A DNA stretch of 64,000 nucleotides, taken from Aliiroseovarius sp. F47248L (GTDB lineage Bacteria; Pseudomonadota; Alphaproteobacteria; Rhodobacterales; Rhodobacteraceae). The DNA is taken from the NCBI RefSeq assembly GCF_023016085.1, contig NZ_JALKBF010000001.1, positions 1,798,001 to 1,862,000 on the forward strand, in the 5' to 3' direction. Below the pieces are notes generated by a model. The model searched no databases. It saw nothing but the letters and a program-made list of their open reading frames with translations, and had not been told where the DNA came from. Made by a program: the position numbers and the translations under genes. Below, piece by piece: positions 19,500 through 25,870 of this stretch (the first letter of the stretch is position 1; every line of letters begins with the position of its first letter).

Positions 19500-20408
19500 A
19501 TGCCGACCAAATCCTGGCATAGTTTGCCCGAATATCAGGCCCTTCGCGCCTTGATGGAAAGCGGTACGACATCAAAAGCGGCGGTCAGACTAGGCTTATC
19601 GCAATCCGCAGTCAGCCGTTCCATAGCCAGCCTTGAAGCCCGCACAGGCCGAATCCTTTTTGAGCGTGAGGGGGGACGTTTGCGCCCCACCAGCGAAGCA
19701 GTGCAGATGAACCGGCGGCTGGATCCGTTGTTCGAGGCGTTAGACCGGATCGACGGCCACCCCGAAATGGCCCGCGAAACCCTGCGCCTGATCGCGCCCC
19801 CGACTTATGCCCACCGCTTCCTAGTGCATCACATTGCGACCTTTCTGAAAACCAACCCGCATTTCTATGTCAGCCTTGATGTGGCTCCGTCCGAAGATGT
19901 CATTCGCGGCATCCTCGACCGGCGGTTTGATTTGGGTGTCAGCGGGGTTGAGCTGTCGCGGAACGGTGTGAAACTGACCCCTTACCGGTCTGCCAGCGCG
20001 GTTTGTGCAATGCCACATGATCACCCACTGGCAGACAGGCCGATCATCCACCCTGCCGACCTGCATGAACAGTCGGTTGTGGCCTTGACGCACCGCCACG
20101 CCCGGCGCGCGCAGCTGGATAAGGTGCTGCAAGCACACCGCAGCACGCCCCGCATTGTGGCCGAGGCCTCAACGTCGTTTGCGGCGGTTGATCTGGCAAA
20201 AGAAGGGCTGGGGCTAACCATCGTGAACCCGTTCCCCATCGTGCAATACCGATCCGATGATGTTGTCTTTCGCCCTTTTGCCTCGCAGATCGAATACCGC
20301 AGTTATTTCGTGTCCTCAGACGACAGACCCACCTCCAGCGTCGCACGCGCCTTTATGAGGCACCTCAGATTGCACACTGCAAAGGACCCCTTCTCGAAAA
20401 AGGCGTGA
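19500..20408 (+). CDS. LysR-family transcriptional regulator
   Basis: A 302-aa LysR protein. The helix-turn-helix spans about residues 20-60 (TSKAAVRLGLSQSAVSRSIA, then LEARTGRILFERE), followed by the periplasmic-binding-like effector domain. It is divergent from the dipeptidase-importer operon with a 115-bp gap that contains an inverted repeat, so it most likely regulates that operon. The inducer cannot be read from the sequence. Confidence 0.88.
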   Translation: MPTKSWHSLPEYQALRALMESGTTSKAAVRLGLSQSAVSRSIASLEARTGRILFEREGGRLRPTSEAVQMNRRLDPLFEALDRIDGHPEMARETLRLIAPPTYAHRFLVHHIATFLKTNPHFYVSLDVAPSEDVIRGILDRRFDLGVSGVELSRNGVKLTPYRSASAVCAMPHDHPLADRPIIHPADLHEQSVVALTHRHARRAQLDKVLQAHRSTPRIVAEASTSFAAVDLAKEGLGLTIVNPFPIVQYRSDDVVFRPFASQIEYRSYFVSSDDRPTSSVARAFMRHLRLHTAKDPFSKKA

Positions 20409-20570
20409 ATGCCGAAATTGGGACACACCAAGCTGATCGCAAACCACTTGGGCGAGAACCGAATTGTATGCCGGTTGGCTTGGTTCTAGTATTAGGTCAG
20501 CATGAAACGGTGACAGAGGTCGCGGTCTGACAGGCCCGCCTGCTTGATCCACGCATTTGGCAGGAACCCG

Positions 20571-21314
20571 TTGCTGGAAGAAATAAAATCCCTTGCGTAT
20601 CTGACACTTGGCACCGCCCGTGATCTGGCGCCCATCGTTGGCGTCGTGGCAATGTTTCAATTTCTGATCCTGCGGCAACCCATGGATGATGTGGGCGAAA
20701 AGCTAATTGGGCTTCTGTTTGTCATGGCCGGGCTGGCAATCTTCATTCGGGGGTTGGAACTTGCGTTGTTTCCCATCGGAGAATCTCTTGCAGATGCCTT
20801 CGCCAACAAAGGCAGCCTGTTCTGGCTTTTGACCTTTGCCTTCTCGTTGGGATTTGGCACCACAGTGGCAGAACCAGCCCTGATCGCCGTCAGCCGCGAA
20901 GCGGCAAGGGTCATGTCCGACATCGGGGCCGTTGGCCCAACCAAGGGCGAGCAGACCAGCTATGCCGATGCGTTGCGATATACGGTTGCTGCGGCTGTTG
21001 GATCGTCCCTTGTTATCGGCGTAATGCGGATATTGCTGGGCTGGCCGATCCATTATCTGATCATCGGGGGTTATGTTCTTGTCGTGATCATGACCGCTTT
21101 TGCCCCGGCCGAGATCATCGGCATCGCCTATGACAGCGGCGGCGTAACGACATCGACTGTAACCGTGCCCCTGACCACCGCGCTGGGGGTCGGTCTGGCC
21201 AGCGTCATCAAGGGTCGCAACCCGATGATCGACGGCTTTGGACTGGTCGCTTTTGCCAGCCTTCTGCCCATCGTTTTCGTGCTGGGCTTCGGGATCGTGG
21301 GGTCAATGCGATGA
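20571..21314 (+). CDS. DUF1538 integral membrane protein, first copy
   Basis: A protein of about 247 aa with roughly six or seven hydrophobic segments. The core has [17 protein letters not shown] and the conserved [14 protein letters not shown] loop, both repeated in the next gene. The family is DUF1538, of unknown function, presumed to be a transporter or channel. The start is uncertain: TTG at 20571 has AGGA five bases upstream and aligns in length with the second copy; an earlier TTG at 20544 is open. The stop overlaps the next ATG by 4 nt. Lead gene of a four-gene overlapping operon with a PII-like and a CBS protein. Confidence 0.8.
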
Positions 21315-22093
21315 TCCACGAATTGCTGATCACTTTCGTTGCGACCATCAAAGATGTGCTGCCGATCCTTGCCGTCCTGATCTTTTTTCAGGCCGTCGTG
21401 CTGCGCAGGCCTGTGCCGCATCTGCGCAATGTTCTGGTGGGTGGTGTCTATGTCGTGCTGGGTCTGGGACTATTCCTGTTTGGCTTAAAAGAGGCGCTGT
21501 TCCCGCTGGGCGAAGCCATGGCCCGCCAGTTGACCGACCCTGCCTTTCTGGTCGATCCCACGGATTGGACCGCACATGGCTGGACGTATCTGTTCGCCTT
21601 CGCCATTGGGTTTTCCACCACGATCGCCGAACCATCCCTGATTGCCGTCGCCATCAAGGCTCGCGAAGTATCTGGCGGAACAGTGAGGGAATGGGGACTT
21701 CGTATCGCGGTTGCGACCGGCGTGGCCCTGAGCCTTGTGTTCGGTACCTATCGGATCGTCACGGGAACCCCGCTCTATATGTATATGATTGTGGGCTATG
21801 CGGTCGTTATCGTGCAGACCATGTTTGCGCCAAAGAACATCGTGCCACTGGCCTATGACAGCGGTGGTGTCACGACATCGACTGTAACTGTGCCGTTGGT
21901 GGCAGCCCTTGGACTTGGGCTGGCCTCGACCGTGCCGGGCCGCAGTCCGGCCCTTGACGGGTTCGGATTGATCGCGCTGGCCAGCCTGTTTCCGATGATC
22001 ACGGTTATGGGCTATGCGCAACTGGTGCAATGGAATGACGCGCGGCGGGCCGAACCGTCTGCGCCAGATGCCAAAACGGAGGACATCGAATGA
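21311..22093 (+). CDS. DUF1538 integral membrane protein, second copy
   Basis: A 260-aa membrane protein homologous to the preceding one over its length: [17 protein letters not shown] matches the first copy's [17 protein letters not shown], and [14 protein letters not shown] is identical in both. The pair probably forms a heterodimer or pseudosymmetric transporter, as other families have both halves in one chain. It has 4-nt overlaps with the genes on both sides, so stoichiometric expression is expected. The substrate is unknown. Confidence 0.82.
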
Positions 22094-22443
22094 AGTTCAA
22101 ACTGATCATCTCGCTGGTGCAGGATGCCTATACGGACGTCATTGTTGACGCTGCCCGCAGTGCTGGCGCCACCGGGGCCACGGTTATCACAAGCGTGCGT
22201 GGTGAAGGGTTGGAGAAGAAGAAGACCTTTCTGGGCCTGACGGTAGCCGGGCAGCGGGATATGGCGCTGTTTTTGGTCGAGGAACACCTTGCCGCCAATA
22301 TCCTTGAAACAATCTGTGTTGCGGGCGAGTTCTTAAAGGAACCCGGGCGCGGCGTGGTCTTCCAGATCGACATCGAAGACGCAATCGGGCTTGAAACACA
22401 GGTGAAAGCCCTGAAAGCATCGTTAGAGAAGGACGAATTATGA
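22090..22443 (+). CDS. PII-like (GlnB-fold) regulatory protein
   Basis: A 117-aa protein with a PII-type beta-alpha-beta start ([20 protein letters not shown]), a T-loop region around RGEGLEKKKTFLGLTVAGQRD that lacks the uridylylated tyrosine context of GlnB, and a C-terminal GRGVVFQIDIEDAIGLE resembling the PII C signature. PII proteins sense ATP/ADP and metabolites and bind transporters through the T-loop. Overlapping by 4 nt with a DUF1538 gene before it and the CBS gene after it, it is likely the gate or sensor for that membrane pair. Family assignment is good, ligand unknown. Confidence 0.78.
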   Translation: MKFKLIISLVQDAYTDVIVDAARSAGATGATVITSVRGEGLEKKKTFLGLTVAGQRDMALFLVEEHLAANILETICVAGEFLKEPGRGVVFQIDIEDAIGLETQVKALKASLEKDEL

Positions 22444-22850
22444 GCCAGCCGGAAGAAATCCGCGTCCGCGACGCCGTACGGCAAGACCCACATATCATCA
22501 ACGGCTTGGCATCGGTTGCTGAAGCCTTACAGATCATTGAAACATCCGGACATAACACGTTGGTCATCGAAAAGCGGTCGCCTGATGACGAGTTCGGCGT
22601 CCTGACAATCAGCATGATCGCGCGTCAGGTTTTTGCCAAAAACCGCGCACCTAAACGGGTCAGTGTTTACGAGGTGATGGAGAAGCCCGCGATCAACATC
22701 TCTGGGAACATGCAGGCTCGATATGCCATCCGATTGCTGACACGGCTAAACATTGATGTCGCATTGGTGGTTGAAGATGATGTGCTGCTGGGCACGGTGG
22801 GCCTGCGCGAACTGACATTGGCCGAGGCCGCTTCTGTGGTATCCAACTGA
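22440..22850 (+). CDS. CBS-domain-pair protein
   Basis: A 136-aa protein consisting essentially of two CBS motifs: the first from VRDAVRQDPHIINGLASVAE to LTISMIARQV, the second from SVYEVMEKPAINISGNMQAR to LRELTLAEA. CBS pairs bind adenosine nucleotides. It ends the DUF1538-PII operon, overlapping by 4 nt, and would be a second nucleotide-sensing subunit for the same membrane complex. Confidence 0.82.
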   Translation: MSQPEEIRVRDAVRQDPHIINGLASVAEALQIIETSGHNTLVIEKRSPDDEFGVLTISMIARQVFAKNRAPKRVSVYEVMEKPAINISGNMQARYAIRLLTRLNIDVALVVEDDVLLGTVGLRELTLAEAASVVSN

Positions 22851-23001
22851 CCCGACTGAAAGGGTTGACTCGACGAAGTGATTGACCCAATAGCGATTTC
22901 CGGCACAACTTCTAACACGGGAAATTTCATCCACACCGCAATTAATCGCGACGACGTTGAGTGATACGCGTCGCCTTGTCTTACACAATTTTGCACACCG
23001 C

Positions 23002-23015
23002 TTCCCAATTGGGAA
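23002..23015. promoter_or_regulatory. 14-bp perfect palindrome before the LOV kinase gene
   Basis: TTCCCAATTGGGAA is its own reverse complement. It lies 34 bases upstream of the LOV histidine kinase start and could be an operator overlapping its promoter. No known regulator is assigned to it. Confidence 0.45.
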
Positions 23016-23048
23016 AAGGTAAGCATTGCAAACAGAACAGGCCGTTTG

Positions 23049-24059
23049 ATGTCCCGAACATATGATGATTCCTGGTTGCGTAAGAACCTGTCCGAACTTC
23101 CATATGCCACTTGCCTGACCGACCCGAACCTGCCGGACAATCCATTGGTGTTCGTCAACGATCTGTTCTGCGATCTGACCGGATACTCTCGCGAACAGTT
23201 GCTTGGAAAGAACTGCCGTCTTCTGCAAAGCCTCGCAACTGACCAAGATGAAATTTCACGCATGCGCGACGCAATTGGAAAAGGCAGAGAGATTGCAGCT
23301 GACCTTCTAAACACTCGCGCGGACGGCAGCACCTTCTGGAACAGATTGTCGATCAAACCCATCTACGACGATGACGGCACATTGCAGCGGTTCACCGGCG
23401 TTCTTATGCAGATCGAAGACAGCCCCATCGAAACGCTGCTGGAAGCACAGCGCCAATCCGAAACTGCCATCACCGAACTGCACCACCGGTTGAAGAACCA
23501 CCTGTCACTTATTCACTCGTCCGCGCGGCTTCAGATCCGCGAAAGCGGCGAGAATGAAGGGTTGCTGGCGATCATGAACCGCATCCAATCCCTCCAAACA
23601 CTCTATGCCGGGATGGAACAGGGAAGCGAAGCACCGGCCGAACTCGACCGGGTCGATCTGTTCGCCCACCTTTCCACGATTTGCGAAGCGATTACTGACC
23701 TTGAGGAGCGCATCAATTTTGAGTGTGACATCCCTGCGGAGCCAATCGAAGTCAGCATTGATACAGCCACGCAATTGGGAATGATGGTTGCGGAGCTTGT
23801 CACCAACGCGATGCAACACGCCTTTGGTGACACCGAGGGTACGATCACGTTGCTAGGTCAGGTCACAACGAATGGTGTCACCATTACAGTCGCCGATGAT
23901 GGTCGCGGCATGACCGGCACTGAATCCGATGCTCTTGGTTCAGGTTTGGGCGGCAAAATACTGCACCAGATGGCAAAATCCCTGTCAGCCGAATTTTCAA
24001 CAGAACAGCGCGACACCGGAACGGCCATTCGGTTGAGCCTTAGTTTGAACGACACATAA
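23049..24059 (+). CDS. LOV-domain blue-light sensor histidine kinase (HisKA_2/HWE type)
   Basis: A 336-aa soluble kinase. Residues about 15-125 are a LOV photosensor: GKNCRLLQ with C56, the cysteine that forms the flavin adduct, plus FMN-contact residues N88 (NTRADGSTFW), N98 and probably Q121. A HisKA_2/HWE phosphotransfer helix follows with H146 in ELHHRLKNHLSLI, then an ATPase domain with N-box ELVTNAMQHAF and DDGRGM. The domain order matches Caulobacter LovK, which feeds the general stress response; the PhyR-NepR-EcfG genes lie 9 kb away. ATG was preferred over the preceding TTG. There is no response regulator next to it. Confidence 0.9.
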   Translation: MSRTYDDSWLRKNLSELPYATCLTDPNLPDNPLVFVNDLFCDLTGYSREQLLGKNCRLLQSLATDQDEISRMRDAIGKGREIAADLLNTRADGSTFWNRLSIKPIYDDDGTLQRFTGVLMQIEDSPIETLLEAQRQSETAITELHHRLKNHLSLIHSSARLQIRESGENEGLLAIMNRIQSLQTLYAGMEQGSEAPAELDRVDLFAHLSTICEAITDLEERINFECDIPAEPIEVSIDTATQLGMMVAELVTNAMQHAFGDTEGTITLLGQVTTNGVTITVADDGRGMTGTESDALGSGLGGKILHQMAKSLSAEFSTEQRDTGTAIRLSLSLNDT

Positions 24060-24087: not shown

Positions 24088-24693
24088 TCAGCTAATTAAT
24101 TGACCGATGGTGATCACCAACACCGCCGTGGTCACCAGCCCGGTCAACCCCAGCAAAGCAAACACGCCATCCTTGCTGATCAGTGAGATGGACAGCAACG
24201 CGACGACCGCCGCCAGCAGCGATGATGTCATTGGTACCAGCTCAAGAAACGGCATGGCGGCGCCACACAGAAAGCAGACCGAGTAAAGCAGATAGGAAAA
24301 CGGTGGAAGTGTCAGCACGGCCATCCGGCGCGTGGTGACGTTTTGCACCCATCTCATTGGTCCCTCAAGGCTAGACAAGGCCGTGTGGAGTTTTTGGCCC
24401 GGCATATGACGGCGCAGGATGTAGTCAGGCAGCCATAGTTGCTGACGACCAAGAAGCAACTGAGCCGAAACGATCGAAATCAGCAGGCCACAGACCGACG
24501 ACAACCCCGGCACACCACTTAATGGCGTGACAATGACCAAACTGACAAACAACAAAATCGGCGTGAAAGACGCCACACCCAAATGGTCGATCATTGCCCC
24601 GATCGACCTTCCCTTTTGATCACGCAGATCAAGAAGGGTGTCAACAATTTCTGCGATCTGGTTATCGGGGTCAACATCGGGATCGTTTGTCAT
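24088..24693 (-). CDS. exoD: ExoD-family membrane protein
   Basis: A 201-aa membrane protein of the exopolysaccharide-synthesis ExoD family, with a cytosolic N-terminus (LLDLRDQKGRSIGAMIDHLG) and about four hydrophobic segments. The conserved SLVIVTPLSGVPGLSSVCG and GRQQLWLPDYILRR are typical. In rhizobia exoD loss impairs alkaline tolerance and polysaccharide production; the molecular role is unknown. ATG was chosen five bases after AGGGGG. It ends 28 bp from the convergent LOV kinase gene. I see no EcfG box in front of it. Confidence 0.85.
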   Translation of the reverse strand: MTNDPDVDPDNQIAEIVDTLLDLRDQKGRSIGAMIDHLGVASFTPILLFVSLVIVTPLSGVPGLSSVCGLLISIVSAQLLLGRQQLWLPDYILRRHMPGQKLHTALSSLEGPMRWVQNVTTRRMAVLTLPPFSYLLYSVCFLCGAAMPFLELVPMTSSLLAAVVALLSISLISKDGVFALLGLTGLVTTAVLVITIGQLIS

Positions 24694-24831
24694 GCAGCCC
24701 CCTGCCTTGGCCGAGCATTTGCGATATCTACAGTGCGATTGCGCGACCACTGACAACAAAAAGCTGCGCACCCAACATGGTTTGAACCGTACCAGAAGAC
24801 AGGGGCGCGCAGTGTTATTGAGCCGTTTGAT

Positions 24832-24990
24832 TTAGCTGGCCGCACGGCGAAACAGCGTGATCACGAACAAGATCAGGAAGACAAAGAACAATATCTTCGC
24901 GATACCAGCAGCCGTACCAGCAATACCGCCAAAACCAAGGAACGCGGCAATCAGGGCGACAACGAGAAAAGTAATGGACCAACCTAGCAT
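24832..24990 (-). CDS. DUF1328 small membrane protein (YtjA family)
   Basis: A 52-aa peptide: [20 protein letters not shown], then [20 protein letters not shown], and a basic end FRRAAS. Two hydrophobic helices with a glycine-rich turn are the whole protein, as in DUF1328. Its ATG has GGAGAAAC upstream. An exact EcfG-type promoter (25027-25051) stands 37 bases upstream, so it is very likely induced by the general stress response. Confidence 0.9.
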
Positions 24991-25026
24991 GATGTTTCTC
25001 CTTTATGTGTTTTCACTTGAAAGAAG

Positions 25027-25051
25027 AACGTGTGAAAGTCCGTTTGGTTCC
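25027..25051 (-). promoter_or_regulatory. EcfG-type promoter for DUF1328 gene
   Basis: On the minus strand, GGAAC-N16-CGTT, an exact match to the alphaproteobacterial general-stress sigma factor consensus. The -10 element ends 36 bases before the DUF1328 ATG. It starts just before the mscS gene end at 25055, so it is confined to the intergenic gap. Confidence 0.75.
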
Positions 25052-25054
25052 CGA

Positions 25055-25870
25055 CTATTCTGGCACGGCCCCAAAATCCGGCGTTGAGATGATCTTGATA
25101 TCGGCATTGATCAGGGCGTCACGCCCACGTGTCGTCAGGTCTGTCGTGAAGTTGAACTGGTCCCGCAACTCGAACGGATAGGCTTTCAATCGCACACGGG
25201 TGGCGTAAACCTCATTGTGCATGATCACCTTCACAGGCCGCGCCCAGTCAAGATAGGGGCTGGTGTGGGCGACATCCGTCAGAATTTCGATGATCCCAGC
25301 TGTCGACCGATCCGGTGCAACCATGAACTCGGCGATGCACATCAGGGTTTTTGACCCATCGTTGGCGTTAGAGATGTTTTCGGACCAGATACGGGAATGT
25401 GGAATGGTGACAACGTCATCATCAGCGGTTCGAATCTTGACCGAGCGGGTGTGAATATCAATCACTTCGCCATAATCACTACCGATGAGTATCCAGTCAC
25501 CGGAACGATAGGGACGCTCGAATATCGCCACGATACCCGCCACTGCACTGGTGGCCCAATCCTTGATTGCAAACCCCAACGCCACACCGACAGTGCCCAA
25601 CACCAGCACGAAATTCTTCAGCGTGACATTGAAAACCATCGGAATGATCAAGACCACAGCGACGGCGAACAAGGTAACCCGTGCCAACGGGATCAGGTTC
25701 AAGGCCAGCAAACGAAACTGTGCAGGCAAATGCTCGGCGACGCGCGGCACAACAGAGCGCAGTGTTTGATAGAGCAGAAAACAAAGGACGATGACCAGCG
25801 CGATCTGCACAAACGTCCAGCTGGTCACTTCGTTGAACAGTCGGGTCAGATCGTAATTCTCAGCGTTCAT
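25055..25870 (-). CDS. MscS-family mechanosensitive channel, short form
   Basis: A 271-aa MscS protein: two or three N-terminal helices, pore-lining helix region VLGTVGVALGFAIKDWATS, then the beta domain start FERPYRSGDWI and the cytosolic vestibule. It lets solutes out upon membrane tension (hypo-osmotic shock). It follows an unrecognised 371-aa gene by 9 bp, so both are one transcript. Confidence 0.87.
   Translation of the reverse strand: MNAENYDLTRLFNEVTSWTFVQIALVIVLCFLLYQTLRSVVPRVAEHLPAQFRLLALNLIPLARVTLFAVAVVLIIPMVFNVTLKNFVLVLGTVGVALGFAIKDWATSAVAGIVAIFERPYRSGDWILIGSDYGEVIDIHTRSVKIRTADDDVVTIPHSRIWSENISNANDGSKTLMCIAEFMVAPDRSTAGIIEILTDVAHTSPYLDWARPVKVIMHNEVYATRVRLKAYPFELRDQFNFTTDLTTRGRDALINADIKIISTPDFGAVPE

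What the first reader, a model, noticed from the sequence alone, without database searches (positions are those of the whole stretch)
20571..22850. Four-gene overlapping operon: two DUF1538 membrane proteins, a PII-like protein and a CBS protein
Every junction is an ATGA overlap. The membrane pair shares the [14 protein letters not shown] loop and looks like two halves of a transporter; a PII-like and an adenylate-sensing CBS protein would make a nucleotide-gated membrane complex. The substrate and function of DUF1538 are not known to me.
Basis: partly seen in the sequence, partly recalled or inferred. Interest (0 to 1): 0.72.

Follow-up and report, generated by a model that had tools for sequence, protein, structure and literature searches.

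The report
Cation antiporter with built-in PII/CBS regulators
A marine bacterium carries a four-gene operon whose two membrane proteins resemble a known sodium/potassium-proton exchanger and whose other two genes look like dedicated regulators of it, a pairing repeated in many bacteria but not found described in the papers we could search.

Summary
In detail: four co-directional genes at 20571-22850, joined by three ATGA overlaps. They encode two paralogous DUF1538 membrane proteins (44% identical), a diverged PII-like protein and a CBS protein. One premise is outdated: a DUF1538 pair, UmpAB of Halomonas zhaodongensis, is a reported heterodimeric Na+(Li+,K+)/H+ antiporter (PMC5484666). The window pair fits the UmpA and UmpB models in the right order, but below their strict cut-offs. 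Starting from DUF1538, 97 of 107 placed genomes have a PII hit just downstream. Another arrangement has a fused DUF1538 pair followed by PII-like genes without a detected CBS. Best explanation: an inverted-repeat cation/proton antiporter gated by its own PII-CBS module, working like GlnK-AmtB or SbtB-SbtA. The PII-like protein has lost the usual ATP/2-oxoglutarate side chains and the window's CBS the consensus Asp of site 1, so 'adenylate-gated' is unproven. New variant of a known kind; the link was not found in the literature searched.

The parts
20571..21314 (+). umpA-like: DUF1538 membrane protein (UmpA half), 247 aa, TTG start
   Evidence: Pfam DUF1538 222 bits; NCBIfam UmpA model 337 bits against UmpB 180; UmpA cut-off 490 not reached
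21311..22093 (+). umpB-like: DUF1538 membrane protein (UmpB half), 260 aa
   Evidence: Pfam DUF1538 226 bits; NCBIfam UmpB model 316 bits against UmpA 218; UmpB cut-off 500 not reached; AF2 model pLDDT 89.5, pTM 0.80
22090..22443 (+). PII-like protein of a distinct subfamily (signature TGATV..xRGEG...TF.GL....D), 117 aa
   Evidence: Pfam P-II 41 bits; 4582 homologues at E<=0.001 among 4604 candidates; equivalents of canonical K90, R101, R103, Q39 and Y51 absent when aligned with the host's own two other PII proteins (residue numbering recalled)
22440..22850 (+). stand-alone CBS protein, 136 aa; best-scoring solved chain is CBS-CP12
   Evidence: Pfam CBS; PDB 5nmu E 4.8e-13 over residues 7-125; consensus Asp59 is Met here
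21126..21173 (+). [16 protein letters not shown] motif in UmpA-like (residues 186-201)
   Evidence: exact 16-residue match with UmpB-like; the helix is broken at this motif in the AF2 model of a fused homologue
21851..21898 (+). [16 protein letters not shown] motif in UmpB-like (residues 181-196)
   Evidence: helix break between residues 187 and 193 in the AF2 model of this protein

Best explanation
The operon makes a two-subunit monovalent cation/proton antiporter of the UmpAB type with its own cytosolic control module. UmpA-like and UmpB-like insert in opposite orientations and form one transport unit with inverted repeats (inferred from fusions and charge bias). Each half gives helices broken at the conserved AEPxL and [16 protein letters not shown] motifs, which probably form the cation/proton site (inferred). 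The PII-like protein, probably a trimer like other PII proteins, docks on the cytosolic face through its shortened conserved T-loop and changes transport, as GlnK does for AmtB and SbtB for SbtA (inferred by analogy). The CBS protein acts with the PII-like protein as a second sensor or adaptor (inferred from linkage, co-divergence and PII-CBS pairs kept where unlinked from DUF1538). The signal is unknown: probably not ATP plus 2-oxoglutarate read in the canonical way, nor c-di-AMP made by the host. Likely role: tuning Na+/K+ and pH homeostasis to an intracellular metabolite or energy signal.
For: UmpAB antiport, need for both subunits and heterodimer reported by others. Window UmpA/UmpB 44% identical, 43% in Halomonas. 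UmpA model prefers gene 1 and UmpB model gene 2. Natural UmpA-UmpB fusions; opposite K+R pattern in most loops of the two halves. DUF1538-first: 97 of 107 placed genomes with PII just downstream. PII-like genes also follow fused DUF1538 pairs. Distance correlations UmpA-UmpB 0.85 and PII-CBS 0.87. Precedents for PII- and CBS-gated transporters.
Against: NCBIfam UmpA/UmpB cut-offs not met. Halomonas UmpAB works in E. coli with only umpAB cloned, so a dedicated PII/CBS is not needed for basal transport. In 3 genomes PII-CBS and DUF1538 lie on different contigs; G388 and the placed pair of G240 have no adjacent PII. Only 93 of 121 PII hits of 60 bits or more lie beside a placed DUF1538, and some PII-like copies stand without DUF1538, four of seven inspected near an amino-acid-kinase gene. 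CBS is not detected in L185 and L205 or in the fused type of L168-L175. No fold match supports a known antiporter fold. No interaction evidence.
Confidence: 0.6

Rival explanations
1. The DUF1538 pair moves something other than a monovalent cation in vivo (for example bicarbonate or a small organic ion coupled to Na+), and the antiport seen with Halomonas UmpAB is a side activity; PII-CBS gates that uptake as SbtB does for SbtA.
For: A well-studied non-canonical PII-transporter pair is a Na+-dependent bicarbonate system. The weak top Foldseek rows for the fused model include Na+-coupled carboxylate and aspartate carriers (best E 0.018, not significant). The operon also occurs in a groundwater bin (L047).
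Against: Antiport by UmpAB was measured in vesicles for Na+, Li+ and K+, and many hosts carry marine genus names (Vibrio, Shewanella, Photobacterium; habitat recalled).
Confidence: 0.2
2. The PII-like gene is an ordinary nitrogen-signalling PII that shares an operon by accident or regulates ammonium or glutamine metabolism.
For: Pfam P-II family match.
Against: The host genome has two further PII genes of canonical sequence elsewhere. The usual ligand-binding and uridylylation-site residues are missing here. DUF1538 genes accompany it in 79 of 80 loci, the last being cut off at the contig start.
Confidence: 0.04
3. PII-like and CBS proteins are not gates but stability, assembly or transcription factors for UmpAB.
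For: Linkage and co-divergence do not tell gating from assembly; UmpAB works without dedicated partners in E. coli.
Against: Both folds have precedents as allosteric modules of transporters; UmpAB forms a heterodimer without them.
Confidence: 0.13

Closest known systems
UmpAB, Na+(Li+,K+)/H+ antiporter of Halomonas zhaodongensis (PMC5484666)
   Same: Paired overlapping DUF1538 genes, 43-44% identity between subunits, match over nearly the full model length
   Different: Window proteins score below the NCBIfam equivalog cut-offs; the paper's main text holds no mention of PII or CBS, and its 4.2-kb insert is described as holding four ORFs, umpB the last numbered
SbtA-SbtB (Na+-dependent bicarbonate transporter and PII-like protein)
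   Same: Non-canonical PII-like protein co-expressed with, and binding, a Na+-linked transporter
   Different: Different transporter family; SbtB's R-loop and R43xxR46 motif were not looked for here; no CBS partner named in the passages seen
AmtB-GlnK
   Same: PII protein that acts on a membrane transporter by T-loop insertion
   Different: Canonical ATP/2-oxoglutarate PII and an ammonium channel, no CBS (recalled)
CBS-CP12 (PDB 5nmu)
   Same: Best-scoring solved chain for the CBS protein
   Different: The match ends at residue 123 of the 208-residue chain; the CP12 part has no counterpart here
PstA (c-di-AMP-binding PII-like protein)
   Same: PII fold with a non-canonical ligand (listing)
   Different: No diadenylate cyclase domain (PF02457) found in this genome

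Membership tests
DUF1538 (PF07556) | Profile match over the curated cut-off along the model | tested here: met
   222 and 226 bits against 22.6, positions 1-211 and 1-210 of 211
UmpA/UmpB equivalogs (NF041627, NF041628) | Score over 490 / 500 bits | tested here: not met
   337 and 316 bits. None of 10 UmpA proteins from four-gene loci (352-390 bits) and none of 26 genomes reaches the UmpA cut-off either, so it looks very narrow
UmpAB-type antiporter | Na+(Li+,K+)/H+ exchange needing both subunits | not testable with these tools
   Needs vesicles or complementation
PII superfamily (PF00543) | Profile match over cut-off | tested here: met
   41 bits against 25
Canonical GlnB/GlnK | T-loop RGAEY tyrosine, B-loop GDGK, C-loop RIRTGE (recalled; seen in the host's other PII proteins) | tested here: not met
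   Aligned with the host's own two other PII proteins: shorter T-loop without the tyrosine, GRGV for GDGK, GLET for R[IV]RT; seven relatives alike
CBS pair (Bateman) domain | Two CBS motifs | tested here: inconclusive
   One Pfam stretch only, residues 76-127; residues 7-125 align with CBS-CP12
Adenosine-binding CBS pair | G-h-h-[TS]-x-x-[DN] in each motif (recalled) | tested here: not met
   Window: T56 but M59 in motif 1, G121 and E124 in motif 2. Position 59 is Asp in 72 of 80 sequences, Met in 7 (window, L008, L009, L010, L038, L046, L059), Glu in L025. Binding by other residues is not excluded
c-di-AMP receptor (PstA-like) | Host makes c-di-AMP (DAC domain) | tested here: not met
   No PF02457 match in the genome; 11 of 14 control genomes ring
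Known transporter fold (e.g. elevator-type DASS, GltPh) | Significant structural match | tested here: inconclusive

The most novel reading that the evidence does not exclude
A widespread, undescribed class of PII-like sensor that reads a new ligand (not canonical ATP/2-oxoglutarate) and, with a dedicated CBS partner or a second PII-like protein, gates a heterodimeric inverted-repeat Na+/K+-proton antiporter. This would tie cation and pH homeostasis directly to metabolic state by a PII-type T-loop plug.
Probability: 0.4. Interest if true: 0.7.

Novelty: new variant of a known kind. Interest (0 to 1): 0.5.

Why it matters
In a sample of 398 genomes of the window's phylum, DUF1538 occurs over the cut-off in 125 (matches in 42 of 212 genera), and 97 of the 107 genomes that I could place have a PII-like gene just downstream. 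If PII-CBS gates UmpAB, PII control reaches alkali-cation/proton exchange; the PII-controlled transporters named in the review passages seen are ammonium, nitrate, urea and bicarbonate systems. The subunit pairs, fusions and PII-PII variant give ready constructs to test what controls UmpAB, a question not found answered in the papers searched.

Tried and rejected
Canonical nitrogen PII: rejected on residues and on two further PII genes in the genome. c-di-AMP sensing: no DAC domain found in the genome. Riboswitch control (Na+ and Li+ riboswitches considered): at Rfam's gathering thresholds the only hit is one tRNA in the window and one tRNA, in L012, across 9 related loci. Promoter/terminator scan of 20350-23100: no promoter-like site (shuffles 1.4) and 2 terminator-like sites, both on the minus strand (shuffles 2.5). 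PII-transporter fusion as Rosetta stone: the 759-aa P0162 turned out to be three DUF1538 domains. Fold relatives: no significant PDB match for the fused or the single model, so no transporter fold is supported or excluded. A Halomonas genome, to read the genes behind its umpB: none of the 26 genomes passes the UmpA cut-off. Literature: searches for DUF1538 (5 papers), UmpAB, umpA/umpB/P-II family/antiporter, PII-like with CBS domain and antiporter, PII superfamily context (21 papers of which 15 listed), PII-NG/CPII/SbtB, PII-like with antiporter and 'DUF1538 domain-containing protein'. No listed title or abstract start, and no passage opened, describes a PII/CBS link to DUF1538. This covers only the held open-licence library, and most listed papers were not opened.

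Full report
Observation. Gene 1 starts at a TTG with AGGA a few bases upstream; the listed frame begins at an earlier TTG, 20544. Genes 1 and 2 are DUF1538 (PF07556), gene 3 P-II, gene 4 CBS. Genes 1 and 2 are 44% identical and share 16 exact residues, [16 protein letters not shown]. The host appears to be an Aliiroseovarius: the best-scoring relative of the PII-like protein is named from A. sediminis, 90% identical.

What the membrane pair is. DUF1538 is not functionally blank. Meng et al. 2017 (PMC5484666) reported that UmpA and UmpB of Halomonas zhaodongensis, paired overlapping DUF1538 proteins 43% identical to each other, form a heterodimer with Na+(Li+,K+)/H+ antiport activity; neither alone supports growth of the test strain at 0.2 M NaCl, though UmpB alone gave some help below that. 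In the window, gene 1 fits the NCBIfam UmpA model best and gene 2 the UmpB model, but at 337 and 316 bits, under the cut-offs of 490 and 500. Ten UmpA proteins from four-gene loci of Vibrio, Shewanella, Neptuniibacter, Sedimenticola and others score 352-390 with the UmpA model, also under the cut-off, and none of 26 genomes passes it. So I do not file it as that equivalog; I say that it is a DUF1538 pair that most likely works like UmpAB.

Architecture. UmpA and UmpB are fused in one ORF in locus L083 and in proteins of about 502-537 aa named from Campylobacterota, Hydrogenimonas, Aquificae and Pirellulaceae among the 120 listed. An AlphaFold model of one natural fusion (P0230, 50-row alignment) has pLDDT 89.5 and pTM 0.89. 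In each half the helices break at the AEPAL and [14 protein letters not shown] motifs. Mean K+R counts alternate oppositely in most loops: N-terminus 1.70 against 0.76, first loop 0.32 against 3.26, after the second long helix 1.98 against 0.78, 165-170 0.22 against 1.04, 202-215 1.98 against 1.00, C-terminal part 1.22 against 3.38. Two loops do not alternate clearly: 146-150 (1.62 against 1.00) and 115-122 (1.10 against 0.82). Loop borders were set by eye from the model. I infer an inverted-repeat transporter with antiparallel halves. The window UmpB alone models well (pLDDT 89.5, pTM 0.80). PDB searches gave no significant match for either model.

Conservation of the four-gene order. A scan of genome contigs with the PII-like profile kept the best 80 loci of 470 confirmed, itself a capped list. 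All four genes are found in order in 75 of 80. Of the rest, L016, L031 and L033 begin, and L068 ends, at or near a contig end, and L083 has the fusion. These sets were chosen by the PII-like gene and by best score, so the converse was asked. In 398 genomes of the window's phylum, 126 have DUF1538 (125 over the cut-off; 42 of 212 genera; many from one family, f38, so they are not independent). I had coordinates for 107 of the 126, as the listing was cut; 97 of the 107 have a PII hit at E<=1e-10 within 1.7 kb downstream on the same strand. Of the other ten, G153 and G317 have a PII-like match downstream in a direct search (127 and 27 bits). G361, G379 and G424 lie at contig ends. G231, G262 and G301 keep PII-CBS on another contig (only a DUF1538 fragment is found in G301). 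G388 and the placed pair of G240 have no adjacent PII. From the PII side, 68 of 75 hits of 130 bits or more lie beside a placed DUF1538, and 93 of 121 of 60 bits or more. Of the seven strong ones not placed, G397, G412 and G367 do have UmpB next to them (L127, L132, L146), three are the unlinked genomes, and G184 was not examined. The CBS gene was not counted from the DUF1538 side.

Another phylum. In 148 genomes of the phylum of the Desulfuromonadales locus, 7 have DUF1538. Of the six newly fetched, five have a PII-like gene next to it and one is cut by the contig end; CBS was detected in two of the five. The seventh is the genome of L011 itself.

Control. The window's own flanking genes (LysR, M19 dipeptidase, PAS kinase, ExoD; phmmer E<=1e-15, flanks of at most 8 kb) recur in only 2 of the 80 loci, L008 and L009. 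So it is the four genes and not the neighbourhood that is kept.

A second arrangement. Fused DUF1538 pairs of 567-597 aa (L168-L173, L175, L184) and a partial one (L174) are followed by two PII-like genes and no detected CBS: nine loci, the second PII-like gene matching weakly (16-24 bits) in four of them. L178 has a fused pair with one weak PII match, and L177 is cut. L208 and L209 have fused pairs of 713 and 706 aa followed by one frame of 369-381 aa with a PII match of 77 and 86 bits by phmmer; Pfam P-II is under its cut-off for L208 and not listed for L209. In the Rhodobacteraceae example (L184) the first PII-like protein passes Pfam P-II (30 bits, cut-off 25) and the second does not (12 bits). 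Fused pairs followed by PII and CBS also exist (L186, L187), and L185 has umpA-umpB-pii without a detected CBS. L167 has a fused pair, PII, CBS, another PII and then umpA-umpB. The constant pair is therefore DUF1538 plus PII-like.

The PII-like protein. In the 37-row alignment R37-G-x-G, T28-G29, F47, G49-L50, R56-D57, G86 and G88 are invariant; in the wider 81-row set R56 falls under 90% and the others stay at or above it. Against the host's own two other PII proteins its T-loop is shorter and lacks the tyrosine; B-loop GDGK reads GRGV, and C-loop RIRT or RVRT reads GLET. It therefore cannot be assumed to read ATP and 2-oxoglutarate as GlnB does. The pocket region is nevertheless strongly conserved, so I expect a ligand (inference).

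The CBS protein. The best-scoring solved chain is CBS-CP12 (5nmu, E 4.8e-13). A consensus stretch is KR..DEYG...xxDIA..V.A..R.P.R.NVYEIM.KP. Position 59 is Asp in 72 of 80 sequences, Met in 7 (window, L008, L009, L010, L038, L046, L059; five of the six loci carry Aliiroseovarius titles and L008 is a bin 96% identical in PII) and Glu in L025.

Modules. Pairwise distances over 76 sequence sets correlate best for PII-CBS (r 0.87) and UmpA-UmpB (0.85); cross pairs give 0.50-0.70; all six Mantel p 0.001. Shared ancestry alone also yields such correlations, so this is only consistent with two modules. The three genomes with unlinked pairs split at the same seam.

Lone PII-like copies. Some genomes hold PII-like copies with no DUF1538 in the fetched stretch. 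In the seven whose neighbours were listed, an amino-acid-kinase gene (ArgB-like by recall) lies nearby in four, an SH3-domain gene directly beside it in three and a GCS2 gene in two. So relatives of this PII-like protein may have other partners; this counts against a strict one-to-one tie.

Mechanism and confidence. Reported by others: UmpAB antiport and heterodimer. Shown here: family membership, linkage, architecture variants, loss of canonical ligand residues. Inferred: antiport by this pair (about 0.7), regulation of it by PII-CBS (about 0.75), T-loop gating as in GlnK-AmtB and SbtB-SbtA (about 0.5), ligand unknown. The system is patchy in its own family: 3 of 149 genomes, the window's own included, pass the DUF1538 cut-off. 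Two diverged versions among Aliiroseovarius loci (74-96% and 59-61% identical to the window in PII) suggest horizontal transfer.

Verdict. Real and widely conserved. It is a new variant of a known kind (PII-controlled transporter).

Noticed in passing
L168-L175, L184; L208-L209: Second arrangement: fused DUF1538 pair followed by two PII-like genes (nine loci), or by one 369-381 aa frame with a PII match (two loci), and no detected CBS.
   Followed up: partly
L148-L151, L153-L158, L160, L162, L166 and L152:9694-10125: PII-like copies with no DUF1538 found in the fetched stretch, or none adjacent in L152. In seven inspected, four have an amino-acid-kinase gene nearby, three an SH3-domain gene adjacent, two a GCS2 gene. 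L159 is cut and cannot be judged.
   Followed up: partly
L167: Fused DUF1538 pair, PII, CBS, second PII and split umpA-umpB in one run of six genes.
   Followed up: no
P0162; L087:4764-7313: Three DUF1538 domains in one 759-aa protein, and three DUF1538 frames in a row in L087; real or assembly product not settled.
   Followed up: no
window 23046-24059: PAS sensor histidine kinase (HisKA_2/HWE type; LOV-like by recall) right after the operon, found in only 2 of the 80 loci.
   Followed up: no
window 24088-25870: ExoD-family and MscS-type mechanosensitive channel genes on the minus strand near the operon.
   Followed up: no
L163-L165 against L180-L181: In G231, G262 and G301 the PII-CBS pair and the DUF1538 genes lie on different contigs (only a DUF1538 fragment in G301).
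   Followed up: partly
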